A DNA stretch of 51,131 nucleotides from Bacteroidota bacterium (GTDB lineage Bacteria > Bacteroidota > Bacteroidia > JACCXN01), in assembly GCA_013696965.1 (NCBI GenBank), contig JACCXN010000025.1:1-51131 (forward strand). Direction: 5' to 3'. The translations under genes and the position numbers were made by a program. The notes under the pieces were generated by a model, which was given only the letters and a program-made list of their open reading frames with translations, was not told the origin of the DNA and did no database searches. Below, one piece after another: positions 3,441 to 51,131 of this stretch. Every line of letters starts with the position of its first letter. Positions within the stretch are counted from its first letter, which is position 1.

Positions 3441-4961
3441 ATGCTTCATAAAGAACTTTTTGAACTAATTAAAGATTTGAATCCAGTTGAGATTGAACTT
3501 ATCAATCGCACTATTAAGAATAGCTCTTATATTGAAACAAATGAAATGCGGTTGTTTGATTTTTTGCTCAATCAAGCAATCCTTCCCCAATTAAGGGATG
3601 TTTGTAAAGCTGTATATAGAAAAAGCTCTCCTAAATCCTATGATTCATTTAAGAAGCTTGTATATAGATCAAAGCACAAGGTTTTAGAAGCAATAATGTT
3701 GTGTAACGATAGTTTTGTGAATTTTCAAAAGGAATTGGATGAATATACTCCCAAGGATCCTGAAATAATAAAGGTAGTTATTTTAAGAAAGGCCATTGTA
3801 ATACAATCGTTTTTAGAAAAGAGAAGTCCTAATTTCATGAAACACTTGCTTGATGATATAATTCAACAATCTGCAAAAAATGAATTTTATTATTTAACAG
3901 TGGAATATCTCGTAATTAAAATGAATTTAATAAATTCCAATGAAGGTGAGGGAACATTCAATAAAATAAAAGAGCAAATTGCTTTTTATGAAGGTTGTAG
4001 AGATGCTGTAAACAAGGCAAAAGAGAATTATATAAAATTCACAATTTTTAATTGTCCTTTTCAAAATCCAACAAAACATAAGGAAGAGGTCGTTAATAAT
4101 ATACAAACATTAAAAGAAAATTTGAAAATAATTAAATCTGATAATATTAAATATTACTTGTGTTTTTATGAATTAATTTTGAATCTAATAAATGAAGATT
4201 ATTTAACTGTCAAAGAAAAAAGCATTGAGTTACTTCAATTTATTTCAGAAAAACATACTGTAAAATCAAAAGAGAAATTATTGACAATAACTTCCTACTT
4301 AATTAAATCAGAAGTACACCTTAAAAACTATGATCAGGCTTTGATTTTACTGAATAAATCACAAATACATCTTGAAAGCGGCAGCATATTTCAAATAAAA
4401 TTCAAGGAATATGAATTTTTAACTAATATTTATTTAAAACATTATGAGCAAGCAGAGGAAGTACTTCTTTTAAAATTTAAAAACACTTCTGCATATAACT
4501 TATTAGAAAAGGAAAAATTAAGCATTTACAAGGCTAACTTAAATTTCATTAGATGTGAGTACAAAGAAGTAAATGACAAGCTTTATTTGCGAAAAGAAAC
4601 TTTGAAAGATGTGACGGGACAGGAGTATAACTGCCGGATTCTTAAACTATTTATTAATTTGTTCCAGGGAAAAGAAGATGAAGTAATTAGAGATTTTGAT
4701 TGTTTAAAAAAGCAGGTAAAAAGAAATTCCATCCTTAATAAAGGTTATAGTTGCCGTAATTTGATTATTTTTAAAATAATGCAACATATTTGTAAAAAAA
4801 ATTACAATGTGCATTCTAATGATATTAAGCTAAATAATTTAATGGATAGCTTGAAGGCCTCTCCCTGGCAACCTTTCGGTTCTGAACTAATTCCTGTGGA
4901 GGAGATAATGACTTCCCTACTTTTAAAAGTAGAATCTGCCCGTATTCAAGAGCTTAATTAA
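3441..4961 (+). CDS. Helical-repeat (TPR-like) protein of unknown function
   Basis: The 506-aa cytoplasmic protein has no signal peptide or membrane segment. It is almost wholly helical with TPR-like pairs, for example SYLIKSEVHLKNYDQALILLNKSQ and EYEFLTNIYLKHYEQAEEVL. The N-terminal 100 residues (LFELIKDLNPVEIELINRTI...LRLFDFLLNQ) recall a multi-copy Bacteroidetes family of hypothetical proteins whose N-termini begin with an L-I-K-x-L-x-x-x-E-x-x-x pattern and which are followed by TPR-like repeats; this copy is divergent. No catalytic motif is visible. It converges with the gspF-like gene (64 bp between stops). Function unknown; a scaffold or regulator is possible. Confidence 0.7.
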   Translation: MLHKELFELIKDLNPVEIELINRTIKNSSYIETNEMRLFDFLLNQAILPQLRDVCKAVYRKSSPKSYDSFKKLVYRSKHKVLEAIMLCNDSFVNFQKELDEYTPKDPEIIKVVILRKAIVIQSFLEKRSPNFMKHLLDDIIQQSAKNEFYYLTVEYLVIKMNLINSNEGEGTFNKIKEQIAFYEGCRDAVNKAKENYIKFTIFNCPFQNPTKHKEEVVNNIQTLKENLKIIKSDNIKYYLCFYELILNLINEDYLTVKEKSIELLQFISEKHTVKSKEKLLTITSYLIKSEVHLKNYDQALILLNKSQIHLESGSIFQIKFKEYEFLTNIYLKHYEQAEEVLLLKFKNTSAYNLLEKEKLSIYKANLNFIRCEYKEVNDKLYLRKETLKDVTGQEYNCRILKLFINLFQGKEDEVIRDFDCLKKQVKRNSILNKGYSCRNLIIFKIMQHICKKNYNVHSNDIKLNNLMDSLKASPWQPFGSELIPVEEIMTSLLLKVESARIQELN

Positions 4962-37307: not shown

Positions 37308-40300
37308 ATGATTAAAAATAAAATTACAATGAATAAAAAAGCTCCTATTCGTTTTTTTCTCGATTTAAAGGTACCTGTAACGACACTTGTTTTTCTATGC
37401 GTATTAAGCCTTGGTTTAAATGCCCAAAACGTATTAACTGTAACCAAGACAACAGATTTTGATCCCTATTTATATTCAGTGAATCCCAATGATACTGCAT
37501 TGACAGGAACCTTGCAATGGGCTATTCGCAAATCAAATGACACAAGCGGAGTAAGTACCATTAATTTTAATATTCTCGGCACAGCTCCGCATATTATAGC
37601 ATTAGATTATCAGTTACCAACAATTACTAAACAAGTAACTATTGACGGTAGCACCCAAACAGGATACCTTTTAAATGAACCATCTGTTATTGTTGATGGG
37701 CAATCATTAATATCTGATGGATTTAATTTTCATTCTCATGATAGCAGTATTATAAAGGGATTATATATAAGAAACTTTTCTTATAATGCAGTTTCTTTTT
37801 ATTATGCTAACTATTTTGAAATCCTATTCAATACAATAAATCAAAGTGGTCAGAATGATGTTTATTTATCCCAATCATCTGATGGAAAGATAAAAGGAAA
37901 TATAATAGGGACAGACTATATAAATAACCCAAATTTATCTTTGTATGGCTCAGGTATACATATTGATTACAGCAGCAACAGGGTATTGGTGGGTGGTTCA
38001 GGAGTAAATGAATTCAATATAATAGCTTATCATAATTATAATTCAGGAATTAAGGTTAACGGGAACAATATTCTTCTCACTAGAAATTTAATTTATGAGA
38101 ACTCAAATGCTATACGTCTAGCAAATGAAGGTCCCAAGGCAAAACCGGTAATAAGTTCTGTAGATCTTTCAGGATTAGTCATCGGAACATCAGAAGCAGG
38201 AGACAGCATAGAAATATTTGGAGGAACAGGGCCAGAAAATGCGAATCACTATTTTACTACGGTTATTTCCGATAGTTCTGGCAATTGGAGTGCATTGATT
38301 GGAGCAATAACGCATTCATTCATAACAGCAACAGCAAGGGATTACTATAACAGTACTTCCGAACTTGCTCATTTCAGTTTTGCACCAATGTTTATTTCTC
38401 AAGGCCCTGATAGTTCATGGATCTGTCCAGGCGAAACTAAAACACTAAGTGTAACTGGGGGAAACCTAGCCCCTGCTTCTTTTTGGAGTTGGTATGCAGA
38501 TAGTTGTGGAGGAACGCCAATAGATACAGGGTTTAGCATTCAGGTATCCCCCAACATTTCAACTATCTATTATGTAAGGTCAGAAGGAAGTTTTATTTCG
38601 AGTTGTGAATCCATAATTATATATGCAAGAGAAGCATTTCATATTTCTTCTACTACAGCAGTTATTTGCAAAGGAGATAGTGCTATATTAACTGTTAGTC
38701 CTTATCAAGAGGGCGTTTTTTGGAACCCAGATATTGGATTAAGCAACAGCACAGGAGAAACAGTAACAGCTAGCCCAGACAGCACTACAACTTATTTCGT
38801 GGGGATGACTCGTGGACCTTGTCCTGACCAATTTACTCTTACAGTTTTACCTTGTTCCATAGGTTGTTTAGAAGATGTAACTATTTGTGCAGGAAGTTCT
38901 GTCATTTTAACTGCTTGCGGAGGAGATAACGACAACTACATTTGGACACCTGCTTTTGGATTAAGTGCAAACACCGGATCCAGTGTAACAGCTAGTCCTT
39001 CAGTAACTACAACCTATACGGTAAGTTCAATTATTTTGGGAGATACTGTATATAAAAGCGTAACTGTAACAGTAATTGCAAGCCCTGTAACCACTATTAC
39101 CGCATTATCAAATTGTGATACTACTCTTGTTGAATTTTTTGGAAGTGGCAGCAGCGGAAACGGAATCGGACTTAATTATTTCTGGAATTTCGGGGACGGA
39201 CACACCTCAAGTCTTCAAAACACTAGCCACAACTATGCTGACCCTGGAATGTATTTAGTAACCCTAACTGTTAATAACGGAAACTGCGTGTACGTATGTT
39301 CCCTTTATGTAAAGTCAGGAAATCCACAGGCTTTTTTCAACATTACTGATGTATGTGTGGGTAGTCCACTTTTTGTGACCAATGTAACAGTAGGGGCAAC
39401 TAGTTATTTATGGGATTTTGGAGATGGCACTTCTTCCCTAGCTGAATATCCGCAATATGTTTATCCTACAACAGGGACTTATTATGTAAGCCTAACCACC
39501 ACTTTTGAAAATTGTACAAGTTTAATAACAAAACAAATTAGCGTAAAAGCTCCCATTGTTAGTGCCTCTTTTACCATGCAACCAAGTCCAGCCTGTATAG
39601 GCAGTCCGGTAGTTTTTACCAATACCAGCAGCAACGATGCAACTGAATTTTTATGGAACTTTGGAAACGGTTATGAATCCAATGCAATTGATACTACCTT
39701 TACTTATTTTGCATTTTCCCCTAACCAAGGTTATCAAGTTAAACTGAAGGCAAGCAATGGTGGATGTTATAAGGAAGTTAACAAGTATATAACAATAAAA
39801 GGTCCCCCTTTAGTTAGTATTTCAGGGTCAGAAACAGTTTGTGAAGGTTCATCATCCAACCTTTATGCGGTAATATCTAACATTTCCACACCTTCCAATC
39901 AATATAGTTATCAATGGAGTTATTCTGATGGAGGTACACCAGTAAATATTGCTAGTGAATACGGAGGAACCCAATCTATATTGCCTGTTACTTTAAGCGG
40001 TAATTATACAGTTGTAGTAACAGATTCCTGTGGTCAGCAAGGCGTTGCCATACATACCATTGCAATTTTAAACCTGCCCCAAGTTTCACTAAACCTTTTA
40101 GACGGTATTAAATGCCCGGGAACAGCAAATGGTTCAGCTGAGGTTTTGGGTATAAGTGGCGGAGATATAATTAGTTGGAGTCCTTCTGGAGAGACAACGG
40201 CAATTGCAAACGCTTTAGTAGAAGGTGTAAATCAGGTTAGTGTGAGTAATGGGAGCTGCAGTAAAATTTTAATAATTGAAGTTCCATATACAGGTCCATC

Positions 40301-43300
40301 CTTATCAATAACCACTACGCCTTCTGGCTGTTCTCCTAGTTCCACCTCGGGATCGGCAACAGCTCAATTAAGTTCAGGAGCAAATCAGTATGTATGGAAA
40401 AATGCATCAGGAATCCAAATAGGAACCAACAATTCAACAATTACTGGTTTAAGTGCAGGAGTTTACAGCATTTCCGTAACAGATAATAGCAGTTGTGTCA
40501 TTACCAATTACTTCCACATATCCCCAGCCATTCTTTCAGTTAATGTATCAAACACTGAAAGTTGTTTTGATGAATCGGCTGATGTAATACCACAAGTTTT
40601 CATTAGTGGCGGATCTACCTTTAGTGGTAGTTTTAGCTGGTTTTCAATTATTAATGGAATTGAAAGTAGTATATCATCAGGAACCGGACTTTTATCAGGT
40701 ACATACCGGGTAACTGCCTCTGACAACAATTTTCAATGCCAGGCATCAACGGATTTTACAGTAGTTCAGGGAGATACATTGAAAATTGTACTTATTCCAT
40801 CTAACCCGACCTGCAATGGTTCTGAGAACGGATCTATACATGCGGCCGTTATTGGCGGTAGCGGTGATTATTACTATGAATGGATTCGTGGAGGAAGTTT
40901 AGTATCCACAGGACAATCAGCTGATCATTTAAGTTCGGGAAATTATACTCTTACAGTTACAGACATTAAAGGTTGTACAAAATCAGAATCTACAATTTTA
41001 ATTGATCCTTTGCCATTTAGTGTGAGTTTTGAAGCCAATGCAACCCCATGTGAACTAGCTGCCACTGCCGACAATGGCATTACACCATTTGTTTTCCACT
41101 GGATTAGAGTTAAAGATGAATCAGGTGTAAACATACTACCAAATGAGGAAAGTATAACAGAAACAAGTTTTCAAACAGCCTTCGGTACAAATCTTCCACT
41201 TGGAAGTTATATAGTGCAAGTAGTGGATTCAATGGGATGTATTGCAGAAGATACAGATACCCTTTCAAATGGCACACGTCCTTCACGTACCTTTAAAATT
41301 CGGTATGTATGGGAGCGGCCATTTTATGGAGAAGAACCGGAAGAATTGGCCCAAAACACACAAATACCTGAATTAATTGAAGAAATAAAAGATGACCTTA
41401 AAAAGCAGCTTGCCAAATGCCTTGATATAATGGAAGCAAGTGTAAAGCAAACCATTCAAAGTTCTTGTTTGGAAAAAGACAATTTCAAGGATGAAGTTAA
41501 TATAATATATGGACTGCCTTATTATCATTATACACTTTATTATTACGACAGGGCAGGCAACCTTACAAAGACTGTGCCTCCGGAGGGTGTTAATTTCTTG
41601 AACAGTACAGAAATAGCAAACCTTTTGAAGTCCCGTACCAATCCAACTTACACACCATCTATTTTTCGCCCAGAACACACTCATACAACCACCTATGATT
41701 ATAATAGCCTTGCTCAATTGGTATTGCAAACCACTCCTGATGGAGGAACCTCAAGGTTTAAATACAATGATATCGCACAATTGCGTTATTCGCAAAATGC
41801 AAAACAAAAGGCAGATTCATCCTTTTCTTATACTAAGTATGATTATTTAAGCCGGATACAAGAAGTTGGAGAAAGCGGATTGAATAATCATTTTTTAAAC
41901 CTTGACGCAAACGATCAGGTATTTCCACTTACCAACAATAAAGAGGTAACCACCACAGTATACACTGATGCAGGTTCGGTTCATTACAACGGTAAGCAGC
42001 AGAGGTTTTTAAATAACAGGGTAAGCCATTCTTTTACAGATAAAGACGGTGATGTTTTAACACTGGATGACCGTGCAGAGACTTTTTACAGCTATGATCC
42101 TCATGGAAATGTGGAATGGCTTGTGCAGGACATACCAGGCTTTGGTAAGAACTACATGGCCTATGATTATGACCTTATAAGCGGAAATGTGCTGAAGGTG
42201 CGTTTTAATGAAAACCGCCTGGATCGTTTTTTTCATAAATACAGTTATGATGAGGACAACCGCATAAAACAGGTGCAAACCTCCCGCAATGGAATATTAT
42301 GGGACAGGGACGGAACCTATGATTACTATGACCATGGCCCTCTAAGACGCACCACAATTGGAGAAGATAAGTTACAAGGAATAGATTACACCTATACCAT
42401 TTCAGGCTGGTTAAAGGGTATCAATACCCCCTTGCTTGATCCATACAAAGATCCGGGGAAAGATGGTTACGTGGGATCAGATTATATGAAAGATGCTTTT
42501 GGGATGAGCTTAGGTTATTTCAATGGTGATTTTATCCGCTCCAACATGGGGAACATCTCACCTTTAAATACTGCAAATAATTATGCGGGCCCCAATAATG
42601 CCCTTTTTAATGGTAACATTTCGTCATGGACCACAAATACTGATTTAACCAATGTATATTCTGGGCCAACAGCTTATGCTTTTGGAAATGAGTTAAAAGG
42701 GGAAGTATTTACTTATGATCAACTCAACCGATTGGTGAAAACAGATTTTAGGAATTCTTCAGATCAAGGTCTTAATTGGAATAATCCAAATAGTTATGGC
42801 ACTGAATATACTTACGATGGCAATGGCAATATCCTTAGTTTAAAGAGAAACGACCAGACAACAAACCTAATGGATGATTTAGGTTATACTTATACAGCAG
42901 GCACCAATAAACTGGTTACAGTTGTAGATGGAGAATTCAATACCATAAACTCCGGAACATTTCATGGAACTCACAGTTATGCTTATGATCCAATTGGGAA
43001 CTTAATCAGCGAAACAGGTCCTGAAATTATAGAAGGAATTCCTGTTACAGTGAGTAATTCCATTAGTTGGAATGTTTATGGCAAAATAGACAGCATAAGA
43101 AAAAATCAGGCTGGTTCCCATATTCAAACCATTAAATTTAAATATGACGCCTCTGGTAATCGTATAAGTAAGGAAGTAATACCACAGCCCTATAATATTA
43201 CTACTTTAAGTACTACTTATTATGTAAGAGATGCATCAGGGAATGTAATGGGAACTTATGAGCGAAAGAACCGTTCGGTTAACGGAGGCTATGAAGCCGA

Positions 43301-45758
43301 TTACTTTATGCGTGAACAGCCCATCTATGGAAGCAGTCGTATAGGTCAGTCAATAAACTCAAGTGATACAGAATTTAAAATAGGTACTGCTAGTTTTACA
43401 TCCAATGCAGCCAACAATGTTGATTTTATAGCAGCAGGCATCATGCAGAATAGCGAACTCTTAAACTGGATAAGTCCTGCCATAAAAAAATATTCGATTG
43501 ACTCCCAAACAGAAACCTGTAATTGCCAGATCAAAAGGGCAAATTTTACTGGAACTGCGAATGTATATAGCGATACTGTTAATATTGCTGAATTTATGGG
43601 ACAGGCAGGCAATGCAGTGAGTGTTGCGGAAGATATAAATGGAAATTTACAGTTTTACACTGTAGTTGCCAAAAACTACCTGGGAAATGAAAATGTTTGT
43701 TTAATTTACGATAAAAATGGTGATTTAATGAAAAACAGCAATGGAATAATTGCTAACTTTAACGCCAAACCGATAGTAATGAAACGTCCTGGCAATAACA
43801 ACGAATATTATTTGTTTACGGTAGGAAACGATGGAAATCCATTTATCCATAGTATAAATATGAATTCAGTTGGATATGGCCTAAGCAATCCTATGGGAGA
43901 AGTAGTTCAGAAGAACACACCACTTGATAACAGTGGTAATTACGGCTCTCATCTTACTGCATTGGAAGATGCCTTGACAGGAATAAATTACATGTATACA
44001 ACTAGGTACATAGCACCGGTAACAGCCGCAGATGACGGCACTACAGAACTTGTTGCTTTTGAATTTTTACCAGGAACAATAATTCCTTCCAAAGAAGTAA
44101 TGGTTTCCATTCCAGGAAGAGACGCAACGGGTAACGGTGAATTACATATATCTGCAAATGGTAAAAAGATAGCCTACTACAGTAGGAAGAAGAAAATCGG
44201 AGGATTTGATCACCGGGCAACTGAAATTAATATATTTACCTTTGATCCCAGCAATCGCAATGCTATTGTTCCCGCAGAAACACGCATAATAGCAGATAAC
44301 GGGGCAGGAACCATTGGGAAATCAGGGATGGATTTTTCTCCGCTGTCAGAGGACGTTTACTTTGCTCAACATGGTATTTACATGCAAGATTACGGTTCGG
44401 GCAAGTTGTCAGAGAAAAATATATTCCAATTTAATATTAACACAACAAATCCTATTACTGGTAGATGGTTAGCTTCAACCTATACTGATTCCATCCAGTA
44501 TGGAGAAGTGAGAAGAGCCAGGGATGGGTCAATGTATATACCGGGTATTGGCAACGACAATTATTTCACAACAATCAATAACAATGGAACAAAAGGATTA
44601 GACCAAACTTTAGGTTACAAACTTACTGGTAATCTTCCTGCCCAATTATTTAAAGTAGGTTCCACTGAAACTCCTTCACCTATAGTGCGTACAGTTGGTA
44701 AAAAGCAGTATGAATTAATCGACCATTTAGGGAACGTGCTGGTAGTTGTGTCTGACCGCAAAATTCCTGTTGATGACAACAATGACGGAACCATTGATTA
44801 TTATACTGCCGATATTTTAGTGACACGGGATTTTTATCCGGGCGGAATGGAAATGCCCGGGCGCTCTTTCAATAGCCCAGATTACCGCTACTCATACGGG
44901 GGGCACGAAAATGATAATGAAGTTAAAGGCACAGGAAATCATATAAGTTTTGGGGATTATGGATATGACCCAAGATTAGTAAGAAGATGGCAAGTCGACC
45001 CAATGAGCAAATTGATGCCTGGTTGGTCACCCTATTCTTATGCTAAAGGAAACCCTATTTTATACATTGACCAAGATGGTCAATACCCTTTTACTTTCTT
45101 TGTTAGGTCTTATGAAAGCAGTGGTGTTTTTGGACGTCCGTTCACTTCAATAGGGGATAACAGAACTGCGAGCACTTCTGAGTCAGCTTCTGCACGTATT
45201 CATTTTAAAATGCATATTGAAACAGATGGTAATAAATTGGAAAAATATAATGCCTTTAGTAGCCCATCAATTCAATTACATTATCCAATAGCACCTTTCT
45301 TAAATCCTAAAGTTGATGTAGCAAGTCCAAAAGCAATTGCTGGTGCTGATAAAAGTGGAATGTATGGTTTTAAAGCTTCGGCTGCGGAACCAATTATGGG
45401 TAAATTACCAATAGTAGGTGGCTTAACACCCGATATTGATATTAAAGGGTTAATGAATATTACGGAAAAAGATGGGATTTTAAGTATTAAAGGACAAATA
45501 AGTGGTGATGGCTTTCCAGATGCAGAAACATTCATTAAAGACAACTCCGGACAATCATTGATGTTAGGAACATATAACCACGGGTCAATGGGTAATCCAG
45601 CGTGGTCTTTGCCAGGTGATGGAAATAAACAAATGATTGGTGTAAATGTGCAGGTTGAACTAACAAAAGATGGGAACTTTAGTAAAGCCTGGTCAATAGA
45701 TGGTAAGGGGAATAAAACAGCATTAGACATTATAGCACCAGAAACAGAGAAAAAATAA
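37308..45758 (+). CDS. Giant RHS protein with beta-helix, PKD/SprB repeats, beta-propeller and variable tip
   Basis: The 2816-aa protein has a signal peptide (ending GLNAQ; the ATG at 37329 is an alternative start). In order it holds: a right-handed beta-helix (about 40-340); Ig-like repeats (about 370-600); three PKD domains (WNFGDG near 624, WDFGDG near 700, WNFGNG near 781); SprB-like repeats (about 934 and 1164, PTCNGSENGS...YYYEW); RHS/YD repeats from about 1412 (YYDRAGNLTKTVPPEG); a propeller-like insert (about 2011-2458); then HLGNVLVVVSD and the RHS core (ENDNEVKGTGN, YDPRLVRRWQVDPMS, GNPILYIDQDG, ending at 45080). The last 225 residues are a separate tip. RHS shells enclose and release such tips. 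A lipoprotein gene overlaps its stop by 1 bp. Confidence 0.9.
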   Translation: MIKNKITMNKKAPIRFFLDLKVPVTTLVFLCVLSLGLNAQNVLTVTKTTDFDPYLYSVNPNDTALTGTLQWAIRKSNDTSGVSTINFNILGTAPHIIALDYQLPTITKQVTIDGSTQTGYLLNEPSVIVDGQSLISDGFNFHSHDSSIIKGLYIRNFSYNAVSFYYANYFEILFNTINQSGQNDVYLSQSSDGKIKGNIIGTDYINNPNLSLYGSGIHIDYSSNRVLVGGSGVNEFNIIAYHNYNSGIKVNGNNILLTRNLIYENSNAIRLANEGPKAKPVISSVDLSGLVIGTSEAGDSIEIFGGTGPENANHYFTTVISDSSGNWSALIGAITHSFITATARDYYNSTSELAHFSFAPMFISQGPDSSWICPGETKTLSVTGGNLAPASFWSWYADSCGGTPIDTGFSIQVSPNISTIYYVRSEGSFISSCESIIIYAREAFHISSTTAVICKGDSAILTVSPYQEGVFWNPDIGLSNSTGETVTASPDSTTTYFVGMTRGPCPDQFTLTVLPCSIGCLEDVTICAGSSVILTACGGDNDNYIWTPAFGLSANTGSSVTASPSVTTTYTVSSIILGDTVYKSVTVTVIASPVTTITALSNCDTTLVEFFGSGSSGNGIGLNYFWNFGDGHTSSLQNTSHNYADPGMYLVTLTVNNGNCVYVCSLYVKSGNPQAFFNITDVCVGSPLFVTNVTVGATSYLWDFGDGTSSLAEYPQYVYPTTGTYYVSLTTTFENCTSLITKQISVKAPIVSASFTMQPSPACIGSPVVFTNTSSNDATEFLWNFGNGYESNAIDTTFTYFAFSPNQGYQVKLKASNGGCYKEVNKYITIKGPPLVSISGSETVCEGSSSNLYAVISNISTPSNQYSYQWSYSDGGTPVNIASEYGGTQSILPVTLSGNYTVVVTDSCGQQGVAIHTIAILNLPQVSLNLLDGIKCPGTANGSAEVLGISGGDIISWSPSGETTAIANALVEGVNQVSVSNGSCSKILIIEVPYTGPSLSITTTPSGCSPSSTSGSATAQLSSGANQYVWKNASGIQIGTNNSTITGLSAGVYSISVTDNSSCVITNYFHISPAILSVNVSNTESCFDESADVIPQVFISGGSTFSGSFSWFSIINGIESSISSGTGLLSGTYRVTASDNNFQCQASTDFTVVQGDTLKIVLIPSNPTCNGSENGSIHAAVIGGSGDYYYEWIRGGSLVSTGQSADHLSSGNYTLTVTDIKGCTKSESTILIDPLPFSVSFEANATPCELAATADNGITPFVFHWIRVKDESGVNILPNEESITETSFQTAFGTNLPLGSYIVQVVDSMGCIAEDTDTLSNGTRPSRTFKIRYVWERPFYGEEPEELAQNTQIPELIEEIKDDLKKQLAKCLDIMEASVKQTIQSSCLEKDNFKDEVNIIYGLPYYHYTLYYYDRAGNLTKTVPPEGVNFLNSTEIANLLKSRTNPTYTPSIFRPEHTHTTTYDYNSLAQLVLQTTPDGGTSRFKYNDIAQLRYSQNAKQKADSSFSYTKYDYLSRIQEVGESGLNNHFLNLDANDQVFPLTNNKEVTTTVYTDAGSVHYNGKQQRFLNNRVSHSFTDKDGDVLTLDDRAETFYSYDPHGNVEWLVQDIPGFGKNYMAYDYDLISGNVLKVRFNENRLDRFFHKYSYDEDNRIKQVQTSRNGILWDRDGTYDYYDHGPLRRTTIGEDKLQGIDYTYTISGWLKGINTPLLDPYKDPGKDGYVGSDYMKDAFGMSLGYFNGDFIRSNMGNISPLNTANNYAGPNNALFNGNISSWTTNTDLTNVYSGPTAYAFGNELKGEVFTYDQLNRLVKTDFRNSSDQGLNWNNPNSYGTEYTYDGNGNILSLKRNDQTTNLMDDLGYTYTAGTNKLVTVVDGEFNTINSGTFHGTHSYAYDPIGNLISETGPEIIEGIPVTVSNSISWNVYGKIDSIRKNQAGSHIQTIKFKYDASGNRISKEVIPQPYNITTLSTTYYVRDASGNVMGTYERKNRSVNGGYEADYFMREQPIYGSSRIGQSINSSDTEFKIGTASFTSNAANNVDFIAAGIMQNSELLNWISPAIKKYSIDSQTETCNCQIKRANFTGTANVYSDTVNIAEFMGQAGNAVSVAEDINGNLQFYTVVAKNYLGNENVCLIYDKNGDLMKNSNGIIANFNAKPIVMKRPGNNNEYYLFTVGNDGNPFIHSINMNSVGYGLSNPMGEVVQKNTPLDNSGNYGSHLTALEDALTGINYMYTTRYIAPVTAADDGTTELVAFEFLPGTIIPSKEVMVSIPGRDATGNGELHISANGKKIAYYSRKKKIGGFDHRATEINIFTFDPSNRNAIVPAETRIIADNGAGTIGKSGMDFSPLSEDVYFAQHGIYMQDYGSGKLSEKNIFQFNINTTNPITGRWLASTYTDSIQYGEVRRARDGSMYIPGIGNDNYFTTINNNGTKGLDQTLGYKLTGNLPAQLFKVGSTETPSPIVRTVGKKQYELIDHLGNVLVVVSDRKIPVDDNNDGTIDYYTADILVTRDFYPGGMEMPGRSFNSPDYRYSYGGHENDNEVKGTGNHISFGDYGYDPRLVRRWQVDPMSKLMPGWSPYSYAKGNPILYIDQDGQYPFTFFVRSYESSGVFGRPFTSIGDNRTASTSESASARIHFKMHIETDGNKLEKYNAFSSPSIQLHYPIAPFLNPKVDVASPKAIAGADKSGMYGFKASAAEPIMGKLPIVGGLTPDIDIKGLMNITEKDGILSIKGQISGDGFPDAETFIKDNSGQSLMLGTYNHGSMGNPAWSLPGDGNKQMIGVNVQVELTKDGNFSKAWSIDGKGNKTALDIIAPETEKK

Positions 45759-46224: not shown

Positions 46225-46256
46225 CGCCCAGGCTTAACAGCTTGGGCGTTTATTTT
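46225..46256 (+). terminator. Strong rho-independent terminator of the surface-protein operon
   Basis: A 10-bp stem (CGCCCAGGCT / AGCTTGGGCG, one G-T wobble) closes on a TAAC loop and runs straight into TTTATTTT. It lies 8 bp after the lipoprotein stop and overlaps the end of the convergent XRE gene. It marks the boundary between the RHS operon and the mobile module. Confidence 0.85.
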
Positions 46257-46591
46257 CTATACGCTTTACTTGTTTTATAATCTCTCAAATAAGCATCCAT
46301 CACATTAAAGAGTTCCGTTTGTTTAGCAGTTGGCAGCTTTGAAATATCTTCCAACCGTTCCAACATATTAGCATCCTTCACAAGCAAAGAAGATTTACCT
46401 ACCAAGAAATCTAAACTTACTTCCAATGCTTCGGCAATGTTAGTGGCAATCTCAACGGAAGGCATCATATCCCCACGTTCATAACGCCCCACAATAGGCC
46501 CAGATGTGCCTATCTTCTCTGCGAGTTCTTCACGGGAAAGCCCTTTTTCTTTACGGGCTTGCATCATTCTATCACCAAATTTTACACTCAT
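46250..46591 (-). CDS. XRE-family helix-turn-helix repressor
   Basis: The 113-aa protein has a classic Cro/CI-type DNA-binding domain at residues 4-65 (MQARKEKGLSREELAEKIGT, then the recognition-helix region SGPIVGRYERGDMMPSVEIATNIAEALEVSLDFLVG). A helical tail of about 45 residues probably serves for dimerisation. It is divergent from the ATPase gene over a 141-bp region that holds two promoters and two copies of AAACGTAACAAG, so it probably represses both promoters, including its own. It converges with the RHS-associated lipoprotein gene, with the terminator between. Confidence 0.9.
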   Translation of the reverse strand: MSVKFGDRMMQARKEKGLSREELAEKIGTSGPIVGRYERGDMMPSVEIATNIAEALEVSLDFLVGKSSLLVKDANMLERLEDISKLPTAKQTELFNVMDAYLRDYKTSKAYRK

Positions 46592-46732: not shown

Positions 46733-48349
46733 ATGGCAAACACTCTGAACACACAGAACTCCGACCACATTACAATGAAATATGAGCAGCTTTTATTTTC
46801 TGTGCTTGGCGGGATAAGGCTTGAAGGACTGGACAGGTTAAGAGTAACGGTAAAAATAGAATTTAAGCAGCAAGCCATCAGGCACAATTTAGACTTATAC
46901 AACGATACCCAAGCAGACAAATTAATCAGGAAGACCGCAGAAAGGTTAGAGATAGGCACAAGCTACATCAGCAAAGCAATAGGACAGTTAATCAATGAGC
47001 TTGAAAATTACAGGTTGGAAGAAATACAGAAACAGGCAGTAAAGCAGGAAACCCGCAAAGTCCTTACAGCAGAAGAAAAACAGGCAGCCATAGAATTTTT
47101 AAAGCAACCTGAATTACTAAAGCGAACTAATGAAATAATAGGAAAAGCAGGGGTAATAGGGGAAGAATTAAACAGGCTGTTAATGTTCCTGATTTTTACA
47201 AGCAGAAAAACATACCGCCCTTTGCACATTGTAAGCTTTGGAAGTTCAGGCGTAGGAAAAAGCCACCTTCAGGAAAAAGTAGGGGAACTGATACCGCAGG
47301 AAGAAAAAATAGAAATTACATCACTTACCGGAAATGCCTTTTACTACTTTGACAAAGACGAGTTAGGCCACAAGCTTGTATTAATAGAAGATTTAGACGG
47401 AGCTCTTGCGGCTCTCTATCCCATCAGGGAGCTACAGAGCAAGCAGAAAATCAGCAAGACCGTAACCATCAAAGACAAAAAAGGAAATGCCAAAACCATA
47501 CACCTTGTAGTTTACGGGCCTGTATGTATTGCAGGCTGTACCACACAGGAAAGAATTTATGAAGACAATGCAAACCGTTCCTTCCTGATTTACCTTGATG
47601 AATCAGAAGAACAGGACGAAAAAGTAATGCAGTATCAAAGATTATTGAGTGCCGGAAAAATCAACAGCTATGAAGAAAAGAAGGTAAAAGAATTTATGCA
47701 GAATGTTCAAAGAGTTTTGCAGCCTGTAACCATCAGAAACCCCTATGCAGAATATTTAAAAATCCCAAAAGAAGTATTTAAGCCGAGAAGGACAAACGCC
47801 CACTACATAGCATTTATAGAAGCAATCACATTTTACAATCAATACCAGAGAGAACAAAAAGCAGATGAAGAAACGGGGGAACTTTACATACAAACCACAT
47901 TGGAAGACATTGCAGAAGCAAACGCCCTGATGAAGCATATTTTATTAAGAAAATCAGATGAATTAAATGGGGCTTGCAGAGCCTTTTTTGAAAACCTGAA
48001 ACAACACCTGAAAGCACACAACCAACAGAAATTTACAAACAAAGAAATCCGGTCAGCCTTCCGCATCAATCACAACACGCAAAAAATGTTTATGGTAGAA
48101 TTACAGCAATACGGCTACATCCGCAAAACAGAAGGGGACAAAAAGAAAGGATTTAATTATGAAGTAATCAGCTTTGAAGAATATGAGCAATTGGAAACCC
48201 GCATAAATACAGTATTAGACCAGATATTGCAGCAACTGAAAGGAACAGAAGTTGAGAAGTTGGAAGAAGTTGTAAAGAAAAACCAACCACTTAAAACCGC
48301 ACCAACAAAAGGAAAGAAAGCAAAAACAAAAGAAGTTGCAGAAAAATAA
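46733..48349 (+). CDS. AAA+ type ATPase of a mobile element
   Basis: The 538-aa protein has Walker A GSSGVGKS (170-177), Walker B-like KLVLIEDLD (214-222), a sensor-1-like strand (VCIAGCTT, about 264-271) and a likely arginine finger in NRSFLIYLD (282). This is the pattern of AAA+ helicase-like or loader ATPases. The C-terminal part (about 430-490, KFTNKEIRSAFRINHNTQKMFMVELQQYGYIRK) is a winged helix. The tail is Lys-rich. Related long proteins with a primase/zinc-finger N-terminus come to mind, but here that part is absent, so it is not a complete primase. It leads the operon, 23 bp before the first recombinase. It may load or remodel the recombinases, or help the element replicate. Confidence 0.7.
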   Translation: MANTLNTQNSDHITMKYEQLLFSVLGGIRLEGLDRLRVTVKIEFKQQAIRHNLDLYNDTQADKLIRKTAERLEIGTSYISKAIGQLINELENYRLEEIQKQAVKQETRKVLTAEEKQAAIEFLKQPELLKRTNEIIGKAGVIGEELNRLLMFLIFTSRKTYRPLHIVSFGSSGVGKSHLQEKVGELIPQEEKIEITSLTGNAFYYFDKDELGHKLVLIEDLDGALAALYPIRELQSKQKISKTVTIKDKKGNAKTIHLVVYGPVCIAGCTTQERIYEDNANRSFLIYLDESEEQDEKVMQYQRLLSAGKINSYEEKKVKEFMQNVQRVLQPVTIRNPYAEYLKIPKEVFKPRRTNAHYIAFIEAITFYNQYQREQKADEETGELYIQTTLEDIAEANALMKHILLRKSDELNGACRAFFENLKQHLKAHNQQKFTNKEIRSAFRINHNTQKMFMVELQQYGYIRKTEGDKKKGFNYEVISFEEYEQLETRINTVLDQILQQLKGTEVEKLEEVVKKNQPLKTAPTKGKKAKTKEVAEK

Positions 48350-48372: not shown

Positions 48373-49377
48373 ATGAAACACCTACACCTGAAAAGCAGCA
48401 ACTTTAAACATTTAGAACAAGGTTTTAAAGAATGGTTAGACATATTGGGCTATGCAGAAACCACAGTAAATACCTTGCCTGTTCACGTTCGGGAATTACT
48501 GAACTACCTTGAAACCATCAAGCAAATAACCCACATCACACAGGTAAAGCCGAGACACATAAGCGAATTTATAAAATACCTGAAAACCCGCAGGAACAAT
48601 ATGTATGGCGGTTCATTAAGCGCAAGCCACATCAATAAAAGTATACAATCAATAAACACTTTTGCCCGCTACCTGAACCAGACCGGAAAATCTGTAATAG
48701 ACATCATTACAAAGCGAATGACAAACGATGTAGATGAAAGAACCATACTAACCGGAAAAGAAATAAAAACCCTTTACGAAGCCAGTTTTGAACCGCACCC
48801 GACTTTTAACAGCAAAGCAATGGGACAAAGGGACAGGGCAATCATTGCTATTTTTTACGGTTGCGGACTGCGAAAAGATGAAGGAACAAAATTAGACATT
48901 ACCGATATAGATTTAATCAAAGGGCTTGTTTTTGTAAGGAAAGGCAAAGGGAACAAACAAAGATACGTGCCAATAGCACAGAAACATTTAGAAGATTTAC
49001 GCAGCTATATTGAAGAAGGGCGCTATTGGTATTTACAGGACAACCGCACAGCCTGGCACGTAAAAAAAGGAATGAAAAAAGAGAATGCAGACAGTTTAGC
49101 CCTTTTACTGAATGTGGAAGGCAAGCGAATGAAAAGCTTTGATGCCCGTTTTAAATACCTGAAAGAAAAAACAGAAATAGAAAAACAGTTTTCCACCCAC
49201 AGCCTGCGCCACTCCATAGCCACGCACCTTTTACAAAGCGGAATGCCAATAGAAGAAATAGCAAAATTTTTAGGTCACAGCAGTTTGGAAAGCACACAAA
49301 TTTACACCCATATAGTAAACACATTAAAAAAACAAGAAGATGAACCAACAGAATTTTTACTACTTCCTGAAAGATGA
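48373..49377 (+). CDS. Tyrosine recombinase with full catalytic set
   Basis: The 334-aa protein has an N-terminal SAM-like core-binding domain (about 8-115) and a C-terminal catalytic domain with all expected residues: R167 (GCGLRKDEG), K192 (RKGKGNK), H276 and R279 (THSLRHS), H302 (LGHSS) and the nucleophile Y311 (TQIYTH). About 55 residues between the Lys motif and the HxxR motif form an unusually long insert (EEGRYWYLQDNRTAWHVKKG...). It is close in kind to XerC/D-type and transposon integrases. The second recombinase overlaps its last 38 bp in another frame. It should be able to cleave and join DNA; its site is unknown. Confidence 0.92.
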   Translation: MKHLHLKSSNFKHLEQGFKEWLDILGYAETTVNTLPVHVRELLNYLETIKQITHITQVKPRHISEFIKYLKTRRNNMYGGSLSASHINKSIQSINTFARYLNQTGKSVIDIITKRMTNDVDERTILTGKEIKTLYEASFEPHPTFNSKAMGQRDRAIIAIFYGCGLRKDEGTKLDITDIDLIKGLVFVRKGKGNKQRYVPIAQKHLEDLRSYIEEGRYWYLQDNRTAWHVKKGMKKENADSLALLLNVEGKRMKSFDARFKYLKEKTEIEKQFSTHSLRHSIATHLLQSGMPIEEIAKFLGHSSLESTQIYTHIVNTLKKQEDEPTEFLLLPER

Positions 49378-50209
49378 AAAGCTTGCAGAAAGCAGCATAC
49401 AGGAACACATTAAAAATATTGAACGTTTTGAGAAATGGGCAGAGCAGGAAGGAATGACAGGAACAGAGCAGATAACCTACACAGAAATATTAGGCTTTGT
49501 TCAGCACTTAAAAAGCAAATCCGTAGGCATATCATCCATTAACAACCGCTTAAACAGCATTAGAAAGTATTACGAGCATTTAAAAGCGGAAGGAACAATA
49601 GAAGCCAATCCCGCAAGAAGAGTGCATATAAAAGGGAATATAAAAAAAGTCATCCATCAGCCTTTGAGTTATACAGAGCTTGAACAGCTTTACCAGGAAT
49701 ATGCAAAACCCAAAGAACACTACAGGGAAGAAAAAGGAAAGAAGGCACACAAGAGAAATACAGTAATATTAAGCCTGATGATATGGCAGGCCATCCACAG
49801 CGGGGAACTAAATAAAATTGAAATAAGCCACGTAAAATTAAATGAAGGGGTAATCTATATCCCATCCACAAGAAGAAGCAACAGCAGGGAAATAAAGCTT
49901 GAAAGCAAGCAAATAATTTTACTGCACCAATACATCAGCGAAAACAATTTTATAAATGAAAAACTTTTTGATTGCCATCCTGCAAACACAATGATGTATT
50001 TAGTGAACGAACTGAAAGGAATTAATCAGGTAGTAAAAAATGCGGGGCATATAAGAGCAAGTATAATCCTGCATTGGATAAAAATGTATAGCAAAAGACA
50101 GGTTCAGTATATGGTAGGACACAAGCACATCAGCAGCACCGAGCATTATGAAATACAGGAACTAACAGGATTAACCGACTTACTTACAAAACATCACCCG
50201 TTTAGTTAA
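49340..50209 (+). CDS. Second tyrosine recombinase with degenerate active site
   Basis: The 289-aa protein has the same two-domain layout. The Arg-I position is H153 (WQAIHSGEL instead of GLRxxEL) and the HxxR motif has Gly in place of His (G236..R239, NAGHIRAS). R239, H261 (VGHKHISS) and Tyr270 (TEHYEI) are kept. I recall similar non-canonical members with a xIRxSxIxxW segment as common in Bacteroidetes mobile elements, so this is a family trait, not random decay. It overlaps the first recombinase by 38 bp, which implies fixed stoichiometry. It may work as a directionality or structural partner in a heterotetramer, or as an alternative active form. Confidence 0.88.
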   Translation: MNQQNFYYFLKDEKLAESSIQEHIKNIERFEKWAEQEGMTGTEQITYTEILGFVQHLKSKSVGISSINNRLNSIRKYYEHLKAEGTIEANPARRVHIKGNIKKVIHQPLSYTELEQLYQEYAKPKEHYREEKGKKAHKRNTVILSLMIWQAIHSGELNKIEISHVKLNEGVIYIPSTRRSNSREIKLESKQIILLHQYISENNFINEKLFDCHPANTMMYLVNELKGINQVVKNAGHIRASIILHWIKMYSKRQVQYMVGHKHISSTEHYEIQELTGLTDLLTKHHPFS

Positions 50210-50234: not shown

Positions 50235-50259
50235 AAGGTATCACAAATTGTGATACCTT
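50235..50259 (+). promoter_or_regulatory. 25-bp perfect palindrome in the ORF6N leader (operator or RNA hairpin)
   Basis: Two 12-bp arms (AAGGTATCACAA and its complement) surround a single A. The palindrome lies 18 bp before the ATG and just after a possible -7 box, a typical place for an operator. From GGTATC onward, 26 of 30 bases (50237-50266) match the coding sequence of the same gene at 50490-50519, which keeps the outer GGTATC/GATACC halves. The protein or a related factor may bind both. Confidence 0.65.
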
Positions 50260-50277
50260 CCAAACATCAATGATACT

Positions 50278-50823
50278 ATGGCAAAGAAAGAAACAGTATT
50301 ACTAATACCGCAGGAACAGATAATCAGTAAAATACTTGTATTACGGGAAGAAAAAGTAATGCTTGATGTTCATCTTGCTGAAATTTACGGAGTAGAAAAC
50401 AGGGCATTAAAACAAGCAGTACGTAGAAATATGGATTTGTTCCCTGATGATTTTATGTTCGTGTTAACAGAAAAAGAAGTGGAAATAGTGGTATCGCAAA
50501 ACGTGATACCTTCCAGACAATATTTAGGAGGTTCCAGCCCATTTGCTTTTACAGAAACAGGAGTGGCAATGTTATCAAGTGTATTGAAAAGTAAAAGAGC
50601 CAGAGAAATGAACATTGCCATAATGAGGGCTTTTGTAGCCCTTCGTAAAATGCTATTAAGCAATACAGAATTACGTTTGGAAATTGAATACATAAAAAAG
50701 AAAGTGGATAACCACGGAAAAAATATTGAACTTGTTTTTCAATACCTTGATGAATTACTGGAAAAGAAAGAAAATCCCAAGCCCCGGAAACAGATAGGAT
50801 TTAAAACAAAAAAAGGAGAATAG
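50278..50823 (+). CDS. ORF6N (KilA-N-related) domain protein
   Basis: The 181-aa protein matches the ORF6N pattern: ISKILVLREEKVMLDVHLAEIYGVENRALKQAVRRNMDLFPDDFMF, then VVSQNVIPSRQYLGG and FAFTETGVAMLSSVLKS, then MNIAIMRAFVALRKML and a coiled-coil tail with a basic end. ORF6N domains are DNA-binding modules of phages and mobile elements and are often passenger genes in Bacteroidetes. The gene is 68 bp behind the recombinase pair and 10 bp before the first hairpin. It has its own leader with a palindrome. Its target is unknown; autoregulation is likely from the repeated site. Confidence 0.92.
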   Translation: MAKKETVLLIPQEQIISKILVLREEKVMLDVHLAEIYGVENRALKQAVRRNMDLFPDDFMFVLTEKEVEIVVSQNVIPSRQYLGGSSPFAFTETGVAMLSSVLKSKRAREMNIAIMRAFVALRKMLLSNTELRLEIEYIKKKVDNHGKNIELVFQYLDELLEKKENPKPRKQIGFKTKKGE

Positions 50824-50833
50824 CCAAACCCAC

Positions 50834-50896
50834 ATTGCAGAATTTACACCTGTTTAAATTAAGGTAGAAAGTGTTTTGCGGTGTAAACCCTGCAAT
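50834..50896. repeat. Hairpin unit 1: 17-nt arms, 29-nt loop
   Basis: Arms 50834-50850 and 50880-50896 pair at 15 of 17 positions; the two mismatches are in the middle of the stem (positions 8 and 9). The loop contains ATTAAGG, AGAAA and GTGTTTT. The unit begins 10 bp after the ORF6N stop and is preceded by CCCAC. Confidence 0.8.
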
Positions 50897-50913
50897 CTCC
50901 CACAAAAGCCCAC

Positions 50914-50973
50914 AGGCAGCCTATACAATGATTAGATTAAGGAAGAAAAGTGTTTGCATTGTATAAGCTGCCT
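50914..50973. repeat. Hairpin unit 2: 17-nt arms, 26-nt loop
   Basis: Arms 50914-50930 and 50957-50973 pair at 16 of 17 positions, with the mismatch again at position 8. The arm sequence is unrelated to unit 1, but the loop repeats ATTAAGG, AGAAA and GTGTTT in the same order. It too is preceded by CCCAC, with starts 80 bp apart. Confidence 0.8.
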
Positions 50974-50986
50974 TTTGCTTACCCAC

Positions 50987-51003
50987 GCTATCACACGGGC
51001 CAT
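50987..51003. repeat. Possible left arm of a third hairpin unit, cut by the insertion sequence
   Basis: Another CCCAC ends at 50986, 73 bp after the one before unit 2. The following 17 bases fill the place of a left arm and stop directly before the inferred IS end. No loop or right arm is in the window, so this rests on spacing and the flank alone. Confidence 0.35.
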
Positions 51004-51004
51004 A

Positions 51005-51131
51005 TGACTCGTCCTGAAATAGGTTTACAGAAAAAACTGTAAATTTATTCGCACAAAATGAAAAGAAAACAAATCACAAAAGAAGAATTAGTTGCCGAAT
51101 ATTTAACTGGCAAAATAAGCTACAGAGCTTT
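51005..51131 (+). mobile_element. Left end of an IS3-like insertion sequence (runs off the window)
   Basis: The stretch begins TGACTCGTCCTGAAATAGG, which looks like a terminal inverted repeat of an IS3-type element, and leads within 53 bp to the start of a transposase-like reading frame. A small hairpin (TTTACAG / CTGTAAA, 51024-51043) lies between. The right end is outside, so the terminal repeat and target duplication cannot be checked. Confidence 0.6.
51058..51131 (+). CDS. IS3-like transposase OrfA, N-terminal fragment (cut by the window end)
   Basis: Only the first 24 codons are present: MKRKQITKEELVAEYLTGKI followed by SYRA. The LVAEYLTGKISYRA stretch is like the first helix-turn-helix helices of IS3-family OrfA proteins, in which a y-L-x-G-x-x-S-x-R pattern is common. 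The gene continues past 51131, so this is a window limit and not a broken gene. Confidence 0.55.
   Translation, partial: MKRKQITKEELVAEYLTGKISYRA

What the first reader, a model, noticed from the sequence alone, without database searches (positions are those of the whole stretch)
50824..51004. Tandem hairpins with unrelated stems and a conserved loop behind a recombinase pair
Two units (50834-50896 and 50914-50973) each have 17-nt arms that pair almost perfectly. The arms share no sequence between units, while the loops share ATTAAGG..AGAAA..GTGTTT and both units follow CCCAC. Stem pairing kept while stem sequence changes means that the fold matters. Both stems have their mismatch at position 8. 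Usual repeats conserve the stem, not the loop. Directly downstream of two tyrosine recombinases and an ORF6N gene, this could be an array of folded recombination sites (like integron attC sites in principle, but without the RYYYAAC/GTTRRRY boxes). It could also be a family of structured RNAs.
Basis: partly seen in the sequence, partly recalled or inferred. Interest (0 to 1): 0.8.

Follow-up and report, generated by a model that had tools for sequence, protein, structure and literature searches.

The report
Folded recombination sites behind recombinase pair
The two hairpins are real and belong to a widespread, apparently undescribed family of self-folding DNA landmarks in Bacteroidota whose best-conserved member looks like a folded chromosome-type (Xer/dif-like) recombination site; these landmarks border swappable toxin-tip and anti-phage defence genes, so they probably mark where such genes are inserted.

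Summary
Observation confirmed. Both hairpins exist at the stated places, with conserved loops, CCCAC flanks, different stems and a mismatch at position 8. They are the first pieces (type A) of a larger non-coding element, A-B-C. An IS starting at 51005 cuts the window's copy. The rest lies on contig C27, joined to the window by a matching ATA target duplication. Hairpin C is two inverted Xer/dif-like sites that fold into one, with compensatory changes. C occurs in 59 of 395 class genomes and is strongly linked to this module (Fisher p=5e-12): a primase/helicase-like protein plus two Xer-like recombinases, TR1 with all catalytic residues and TR2 usually lacking two. Most module loci lie among RHS toxin-tip fragments. 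Elsewhere B+C sits at the border of variable cargo, including Argonaute-type defence genes. In two lineages C-type hairpins lie at chromosomal dif with breakpoints in the C spacer. So C is probably a folded recombination site that works like integron attC or CTXphi attP(+), without being an integron. A structured RNA is not excluded. No earlier description was found.

The parts
50829..50901 (+). A-type hairpin 1 (arms 50834-50850 / 50880-50896, flanks CCCAC/CTCCC)
50909..50978 (+). A-type hairpin 2 (arms 50914-50930 / 50957-50973, flank CCCAC)
51002..51131 (+). IS left end from 51005 (TGACTCGTCCTGAAATAGG...), preceded by ATA at 51002-51004; the same ATA follows the IS right end on contig C27 (L191, just after position 127), not on its competitor C63 (TAT). 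Hairpins A3, B and C of this locus are therefore inferred to be on C27 (about 145-466), followed by an orphan RHS tip from 1405
48373..49377 (+). TR1: Xer-like tyrosine recombinase with all six catalytic residues (R167 K192 H276 R279 H302 Y311), kept in 42-43 of 43 relatives
49340..50209 (+). TR2: degenerate tyrosine recombinase, overlapping TR1; first catalytic Arg kept in 7 of 44, HxxR His in 2 of 44, second Arg 43 and Tyr 41 of 44
46733..48349 (+). P-loop ATPase/helicase-like protein, no Pfam family; relatives (L092, L093) carry an N-terminal DnaG-type CHC2 + TOPRIM primase
50278..50823 (+). ORF6N gene, present in some relatives of the module only
46250..46591 (-). HTH (Cro/CI-type) gene, often divergent from the module in relatives
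37308..45758 (+). RHS-repeat gene; its 44722-44845 is 100% identical over 124 bp to the orphan RHS tip on contig C27

Best explanation
The two hairpins are the A part of a composite, strand-folding non-coding element, A-B-C. Its C part is a folded Xer-type recombination site: two inverted dif-like half copies (arm pattern ACATAA-N5..7-TTATA) anneal into one double-stranded-looking site with a mismatched or bulged spacer and a variable tip. At the RHS loci I propose that the linked Xer-like pair, one catalytically complete (TR1) and one degenerate (TR2), binds the folded C. It would exchange one strand in the spacer of the 5' arm, and the primase/helicase would resolve the product by replication. 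The result would be insertion or exchange of cargo next to the element: RHS toxin-tip cassettes here, defence genes elsewhere, where host XerC/XerD would do the job. A and B would be accessory structures for strand choice, protein loading or keeping ssDNA folded. Shown by comparison: the element, its covariation, the linkage to the module, its place at cargo borders, dif junctions with breakpoints in the C spacer, TR2 degeneracy. Inferred: that TR1/TR2 act on C, that single-stranded DNA is the substrate, and what A and B do.
For: C alignment: 93.8% of cells paired, 29 double changes, covariation score 0.311 against 0.081 shuffled (0 of 500), all slid controls at or below 0.072. The spacer differs between loci but largely matches within a hairpin, 6/6 or mostly 7/5. 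Model R1 hits 59 of 395 class genomes at E<=1e-3, where about 0.4 are expected; 20 of 29 genomes with the module protein have C against 39 of 366 without, p=5e-12; by my count about 20 of 43 module loci have C within 7 kb. Junctions: at dif in G214 (9.2-kb insert, compared with G016) and in G314 (three tandem copies), sequence upstream of the spacer is dif or dif-like at one end and C-type at the other, and downstream of it is shared. Neither insert encodes a TR1/TR2-like protein; G214 cargo includes pAgo and a Cas4-like nuclease. The B+C border is constant near -256 to -262 of C with unrelated upstream cargo. A sits at about -209 to -231 of C in about ten of 35 loci. TR1 intact, TR2 degenerate.
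Against: No experiment. The dif junctions are in genomes whose inserts lack TR1/TR2, so they speak for host Xer, not for TR1/TR2. Module loci of the other recombinase subgroup (e.g. L099, L127, L130) have no C. Two different C spacers occur within single loci (L084, L086), so C is not matched to one fixed partner spacer. RHS tips can also be swapped by ordinary homologous recombination (124 bp identity). A has no dif-like motif.
Confidence: 0.6

Rival explanations
1. A-B-C is a structured RNA (a small RNA or guide used by the linked proteins); the stems covary because the RNA must fold.
For: Conserved loops with covarying stems are the classic RNA sign. B is a long multi-part hairpin with conserved internal loops, mean z about -3. 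The region is non-coding in the RHS loci.
Against: C carries an Xer-site arm pattern and lies at dif junctions, which an RNA does not explain. No Rfam match at gathering score in nine element-bearing loci apart from a Flavo-1 hit elsewhere in L202; only a weak sub-threshold hit in the window. The element occurs in either orientation to the module. No G-U pair on the A-B-C strand in A stems or C, though the opposite strand could be the one transcribed.
Confidence: 0.2
2. The A hairpins themselves are attC-like cassette sites.
For: Two in tandem, different stems, a conserved interruption at position 8, next to recombinases.
Against: No cassette between the two units (17 nt). Where B and C are present, A is found at a fixed distance of about -210 to -230 from C. 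The first A hairpin also survives as a truncated relic next to a decayed ORF6N tail (C94). No junction maps to A; RYYYAAC/GTTRRRY absent.
Confidence: 0.08
3. The element is a replication or transfer origin (sso, oriT or primase loading site) of a mobile element, and cargo borders are where the element ends.
For: The partner protein is primase/helicase-like. Long hairpins on a C-rich strand fit a single-strand origin.
Against: Does not explain the dif-like arms of C or the breakpoints in the C spacer. B+C also occurs in genomes without the primase module.
Confidence: 0.09
4. Ordinary terminators or intergenic palindromes with no role in recombination.
For: Hairpins after a 3' gene end are common; the wider region is rich in hairpins.
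Against: 26-29 nt conserved loops, stem replacement with kept pairing, conserved order A-B-C across many genera.
Confidence: 0.03

Closest known systems
CTXphi attP(+) folded Xer site
   Same: Two inverted dif-like sites anneal on one strand into a folded site recombined with chromosomal dif by host Xer enzymes (PMC4246890); C is also an inverted dif-like pair and C-type hairpins lie at dif in G016, G214 and G314.
   Different: Not a phage; cargo is defence genes or RHS tips; C belongs to a larger A-B-C element; a dedicated recombinase pair is linked in many loci.
Integron attC sites
   Same: Folded site, unpaired or bulged central spacer, variable terminal structure (features in PMC2727003), next to cargo.
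   Different: No R-box pair (0 of 15); TR1 is far below the integron-integrase cut-off (120 vs 265 bits); two recombinases plus a primase/helicase.
rAID systems and polyimmunity loci of Bacteroidota
   Same: Tyrosine recombinase, arrays of toxin-immunity-type genes, conserved intergenic motifs (PMC12247911); polyimmunity loci next to XerC/D noted in PMC3482391.
   Different: rAID is described with one recombinase and immunity genes; whether its intergenic motif is C-like could not be tested here.
Bacteroidetes microvirus proviruses at dif
   Same: Integrate at dif-like sites without an integrase; some have an extra dif-like sequence near one end, compared there with CTXphi-like inverted sites (PMC3091885).
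   Different: ssDNA viruses; no A/B structures and no RHS/defence cargo described.
Strand-biased circularizing integrative elements (SE) and gamma-mobile-trio elements
   Same: Two or more tyrosine recombinases; single-strand intermediates proposed for SE (PMC9345347). Gamma-mobile-trio elements carry defence cargo (own knowledge).
   Different: No A-B-C element described; in SE both recombinases keep the R-H-R-Y motif (PMC9345347), whereas TR2 does not; TR1 scores far below the GmtY/GmtZ cut-offs.

Membership tests
Integron (attC/IntI) | RYYYAAC / GTTRRRY box pair | tested here: not met
   0 of 15 C hairpins, none in A1/A2
Integron (attC/IntI) | IntI-type integrase | tested here: not met
   TR1 120 bits against TIGR02249 cut-off 265; TR2 no hit
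Integron (attC/IntI) | site folds with extrahelical bases/unpaired spacer and variable tip | tested here: met
   spacers mostly 7/5 or 6/6 with mismatch, variable apical part
Integron (attC/IntI) | recombination of one strand only | not testable with these tools
   needs biochemistry
Xer-exploiting element (IMEX, CTXphi type) | folded pair of inverted dif-like sites | tested here: met
Xer-exploiting element (IMEX, CTXphi type) | integration at dif without own recombinase | tested here: inconclusive
   fits G214 and G314; other loci, including the window's, are not shown to be at dif and many carry their own recombinases
rAID | one tyrosine recombinase followed by co-oriented orphan immunity genes | tested here: not met
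   two recombinases, primase/helicase, RHS tips
rAID | its conserved intergenic motif | not tested
   motif sequence not available in the paper read
Known Rfam RNA family | score above gathering threshold | tested here: not met
   window, one weak sub-threshold hit; nine element-bearing loci

The most novel reading that the evidence does not exclude
A Bacteroidota-wide, integron-like platform that is not an integron: folded dif-like sites in a composite A-B-C element, worked either by host XerC/XerD or by a dedicated pair of one active and one degenerate Xer recombinase with a primase/helicase that completes single-strand exchange by replication, used to load and reshuffle RHS toxin tips and anti-phage defence cargo.
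Probability: 0.4. Interest if true: 0.92.

Novelty: new variant of a known kind. Interest (0 to 1): 0.78.

Why it matters
How polymorphic-toxin tips and defence genes are gained and swapped in Bacteroidota is largely open. Recombinases next to immunity-gene clusters were noted before (PMC3482391, PMC12247911), but the mechanism was left open there. This element gives a concrete, searchable site (covariance model, coordinates), natural junctions at dif, and a recombinase pair in which one partner seems built to bind but not cut. Such a pair would be expected if only one strand exchange is wanted, as with folded single-strand sites. It also makes the question 'is single-strand folding used for gene capture outside integrons and CTXphi?' directly testable.

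Tried and rejected
1) Exact loop-motif search in the genome: 29 hits with up to 3 mismatches against 37 for the reversed control, so the loop motif alone is uninformative. 2) Rfam: nothing relevant. 3) Plasmid and phage collections with a B+C sequence: no match; one viral contig matched a C consensus and was not followed. 4) 'The bottom strand is the folded strand because it folds more stably' (24 of 24 for B with DNA parameters): rejected for B, because composition alone predicts a difference at least as large; a small excess remains for C (p=0.008), and off-pairs in A and C are A-C 9 times and G-T never on the A-B-C strand, so bottom-strand folding is a hint only. 5) Seeking A in a fixed window misses loci without B (L085, L094). 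6) G219:C72 looked like a cassette array with its own recombinase; that gene passes the XerD cut-off and may be the host's. 7) Contig C63 as the window's neighbour: rejected by its target duplication. 8) IS200-like transposase for the ~142-aa ORF near B+C: it is DUF6943.

Full report
What is in the sequence. The window is contig C25 of a 3.86-Mb genome. At its 3' end lie, in order: an RHS-repeat gene, a DUF6843 gene, a divergent HTH gene, a P-loop ATPase gene, two overlapping tyrosine recombinase genes (TR1, TR2), an ORF6N gene, the two hairpins, and the first 127 bases of an IS. They fold better than nearly all shuffles and are the only two of that quality in 51 kb, where shuffles give 0.33. 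The arms keep some similarity at a 1-nt offset (9 of 16, not significant).

The window's copy is interrupted. The finding ends exactly where an IS begins (51005). Contig C27 begins with the right end of the same kind of IS. The three bases flanking the IS agree (ATA left, ATA right), while the other contig that starts with the identical IS end has TAT. C27 continues with a third A-type hairpin, a long hairpin B, a hairpin C and an orphan RHS tip. The tip shares exactly 124 bp at 100% identity with the window's own RHS gene (44722-44845) and nothing else in the window. The adjacency is inferred, not sequenced.

The module. Relatives of the ATPase were found in 16 of 119 and 29 of 395 genomes of the same class and at 21 loci in named contigs, nearly all Bacteroidota: Chitinophaga, Arachidicoccus, Dokdonia, Kordia, Polaribacter, Lacinutrix and others. 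In several the protein starts with a DnaG-type CHC2 and TOPRIM primase. TR1 and TR2 almost always follow. Most loci are flanked by RHS fragments matching only the end of the RHS core, i.e. orphan tips; one has four in a row. In 43 TR1 proteins all six catalytic residues are kept in all but at most one truncated member. In 44 TR2 proteins the first arginine is kept in 7 and the HxxR histidine in 2, while the second arginine (43) and the tyrosine (41) are kept. TR1 is closest to XerD/XerC structures and models, and far below the integron-integrase cut-off.

The element. Between TR2/ORF6N and the next RHS tip many loci share a stretch of about 350-400 nt, in either orientation to the module, sometimes twice in inverted orientation. 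It has three parts. A: a hairpin with unrelated stems from locus to locus. Over 13 A hairpins own arms pair 94%, swapped arms 29% (p about 1e-5), arm identity 28%. B: a long nested hairpin. C: two inverted dif-like arms, ACATAA-spacer-TTATA, closing a variable tip. The C spacer differs between loci but largely matches within each hairpin, mostly 7/5 or 6/6. Counted pairs give 29 double changes and a covariation score four times the shuffled mean. Where present, A sits about 210-230 nt upstream of C in about ten of 35 loci.

Distribution. A covariance model of C finds it in 59 of 395 class genomes; 20 of these are among the 29 with the module protein (p=5e-12). By my count from the two tables about 20 of 43 module loci have C within 7 kb. 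In a phylum-wide sample it is also found, more weakly, in a few genomes outside the class. So the element is linked to the module but not confined to it.

Cargo borders and dif. In five genomes without the module near the site B+C marks a sharp border. The homologous backbone begins near -256 to -262 from C in most pairwise comparisons (some start nearer, at -189 to -234), whereas the upstream genes are unrelated: prokaryotic Argonaute (two genomes), McrBC next to one of them, an SF1 helicase of a PADLOC candidate family, a nucleotidyltransferase-phosphatase; a DUF6943 gene follows about 1 kb downstream. A motif with the expected look of chromosomal dif (TATAATTTATATTATGTNAA or close) was found in the genomes checked; that it is dif rests on its match to the general dif pattern, not on a test. 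In G016 and G214 a C-type hairpin has this motif as its 5' arm. In G214 a 9.2-kb insert with Argonaute and Cas4-like nuclease genes separates it from a second hairpin whose 5' arm is C-type and whose loop resembles that of G016 (86% over 99 nt). In G314, another family, three tandem copies show the same: dif or dif-like or C-type sequence up to the spacer, then shared sequence. No TR1/TR2-like protein is encoded there. This is what a crossover in the spacer of the 5' arm of C would leave.

How it may work. C resembles the folded attP(+) of CTXphi, where two inverted dif-like sites on one strand make a site for host Xer enzymes (PMC4246890), and shares structural features with integron attC (PMC2727003). 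For elements at dif the host Xer enzymes are the likely agents. For the RHS loci the linked TR1/TR2 pair is the likely agent. A partner that lacks catalytic residues would suit a reaction in which only one strand is to be exchanged, and a primase/helicase would suit replicative completion. These steps are inference. The roles of A and B are unknown to me beyond being conserved as folds.

Limits. RNA is not excluded. Strand bias in folding energy is explained by composition for B; only a weak hint of bottom-strand selection remains for C and A. About half of the module loci, including a whole recombinase subgroup, show no C. Searches of the held papers found no description of this element, but most subscription papers are not held.

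Verdict. Real, conserved and interesting. A new variant of folded Xer-type or attC-like sites, tied to toxin-tip and defence cargo; not a member of the integron family by two tested features.

Noticed in passing
44722-44845; L191 1418-1541: 124 bp at 100% identity between the window's RHS gene and an orphan RHS tip on contig C27, with sharp edges: a likely recent tip exchange by recombination.
   Followed up: partly
L084 1-5700: Four RHS C-terminal tip cassettes in a row, three sharing 88-94% identical core DNA, each with a different tip and a following small gene.
   Followed up: partly
49340-50209: TR2 family: conserved tyrosine recombinase that has usually lost two catalytic residues yet stays paired with an intact one in most loci.
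   Followed up: yes
50235-50257 and 50490-50512: Inverted repeat GGTATCACAAATTGTGATACC just upstream of ORF6N, with a near copy inside the ORF6N coding sequence; possible operator.
   Followed up: no
L046 about 4420-4490 (G000 C94:31419-31489): Relic of an ORF6N 3' end followed by the left half of hairpin A1, broken off in the loop after ATTA.
   Followed up: partly
L190 9684-11885: Six C-type hairpins on one strand within 2.2 kb in G219, near a XerD-class recombinase gene and AbiE-like genes: looks like a cassette array.
   Followed up: partly
L092 542-15370: 7.3-kb tandem duplication of the whole recombinase module with boundaries in RHS core repeats (99.5% identical; could be an assembly artefact).
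   Followed up: no
L084 12258-13316; L207 4720-5401; L086 13836-14285: Pairs of C hairpins facing each other (+ then -) around 0.3-0.9 kb, a recurrent layout with unknown meaning.
   Followed up: no
L202 6185-6610; L203 6231-6656; L201 3599-4027; L197 3108-3545: DUF6943 (PF22105) gene about 1 kb downstream of B+C in several loci without the module; a constant neighbour of unknown function.
   Followed up: partly
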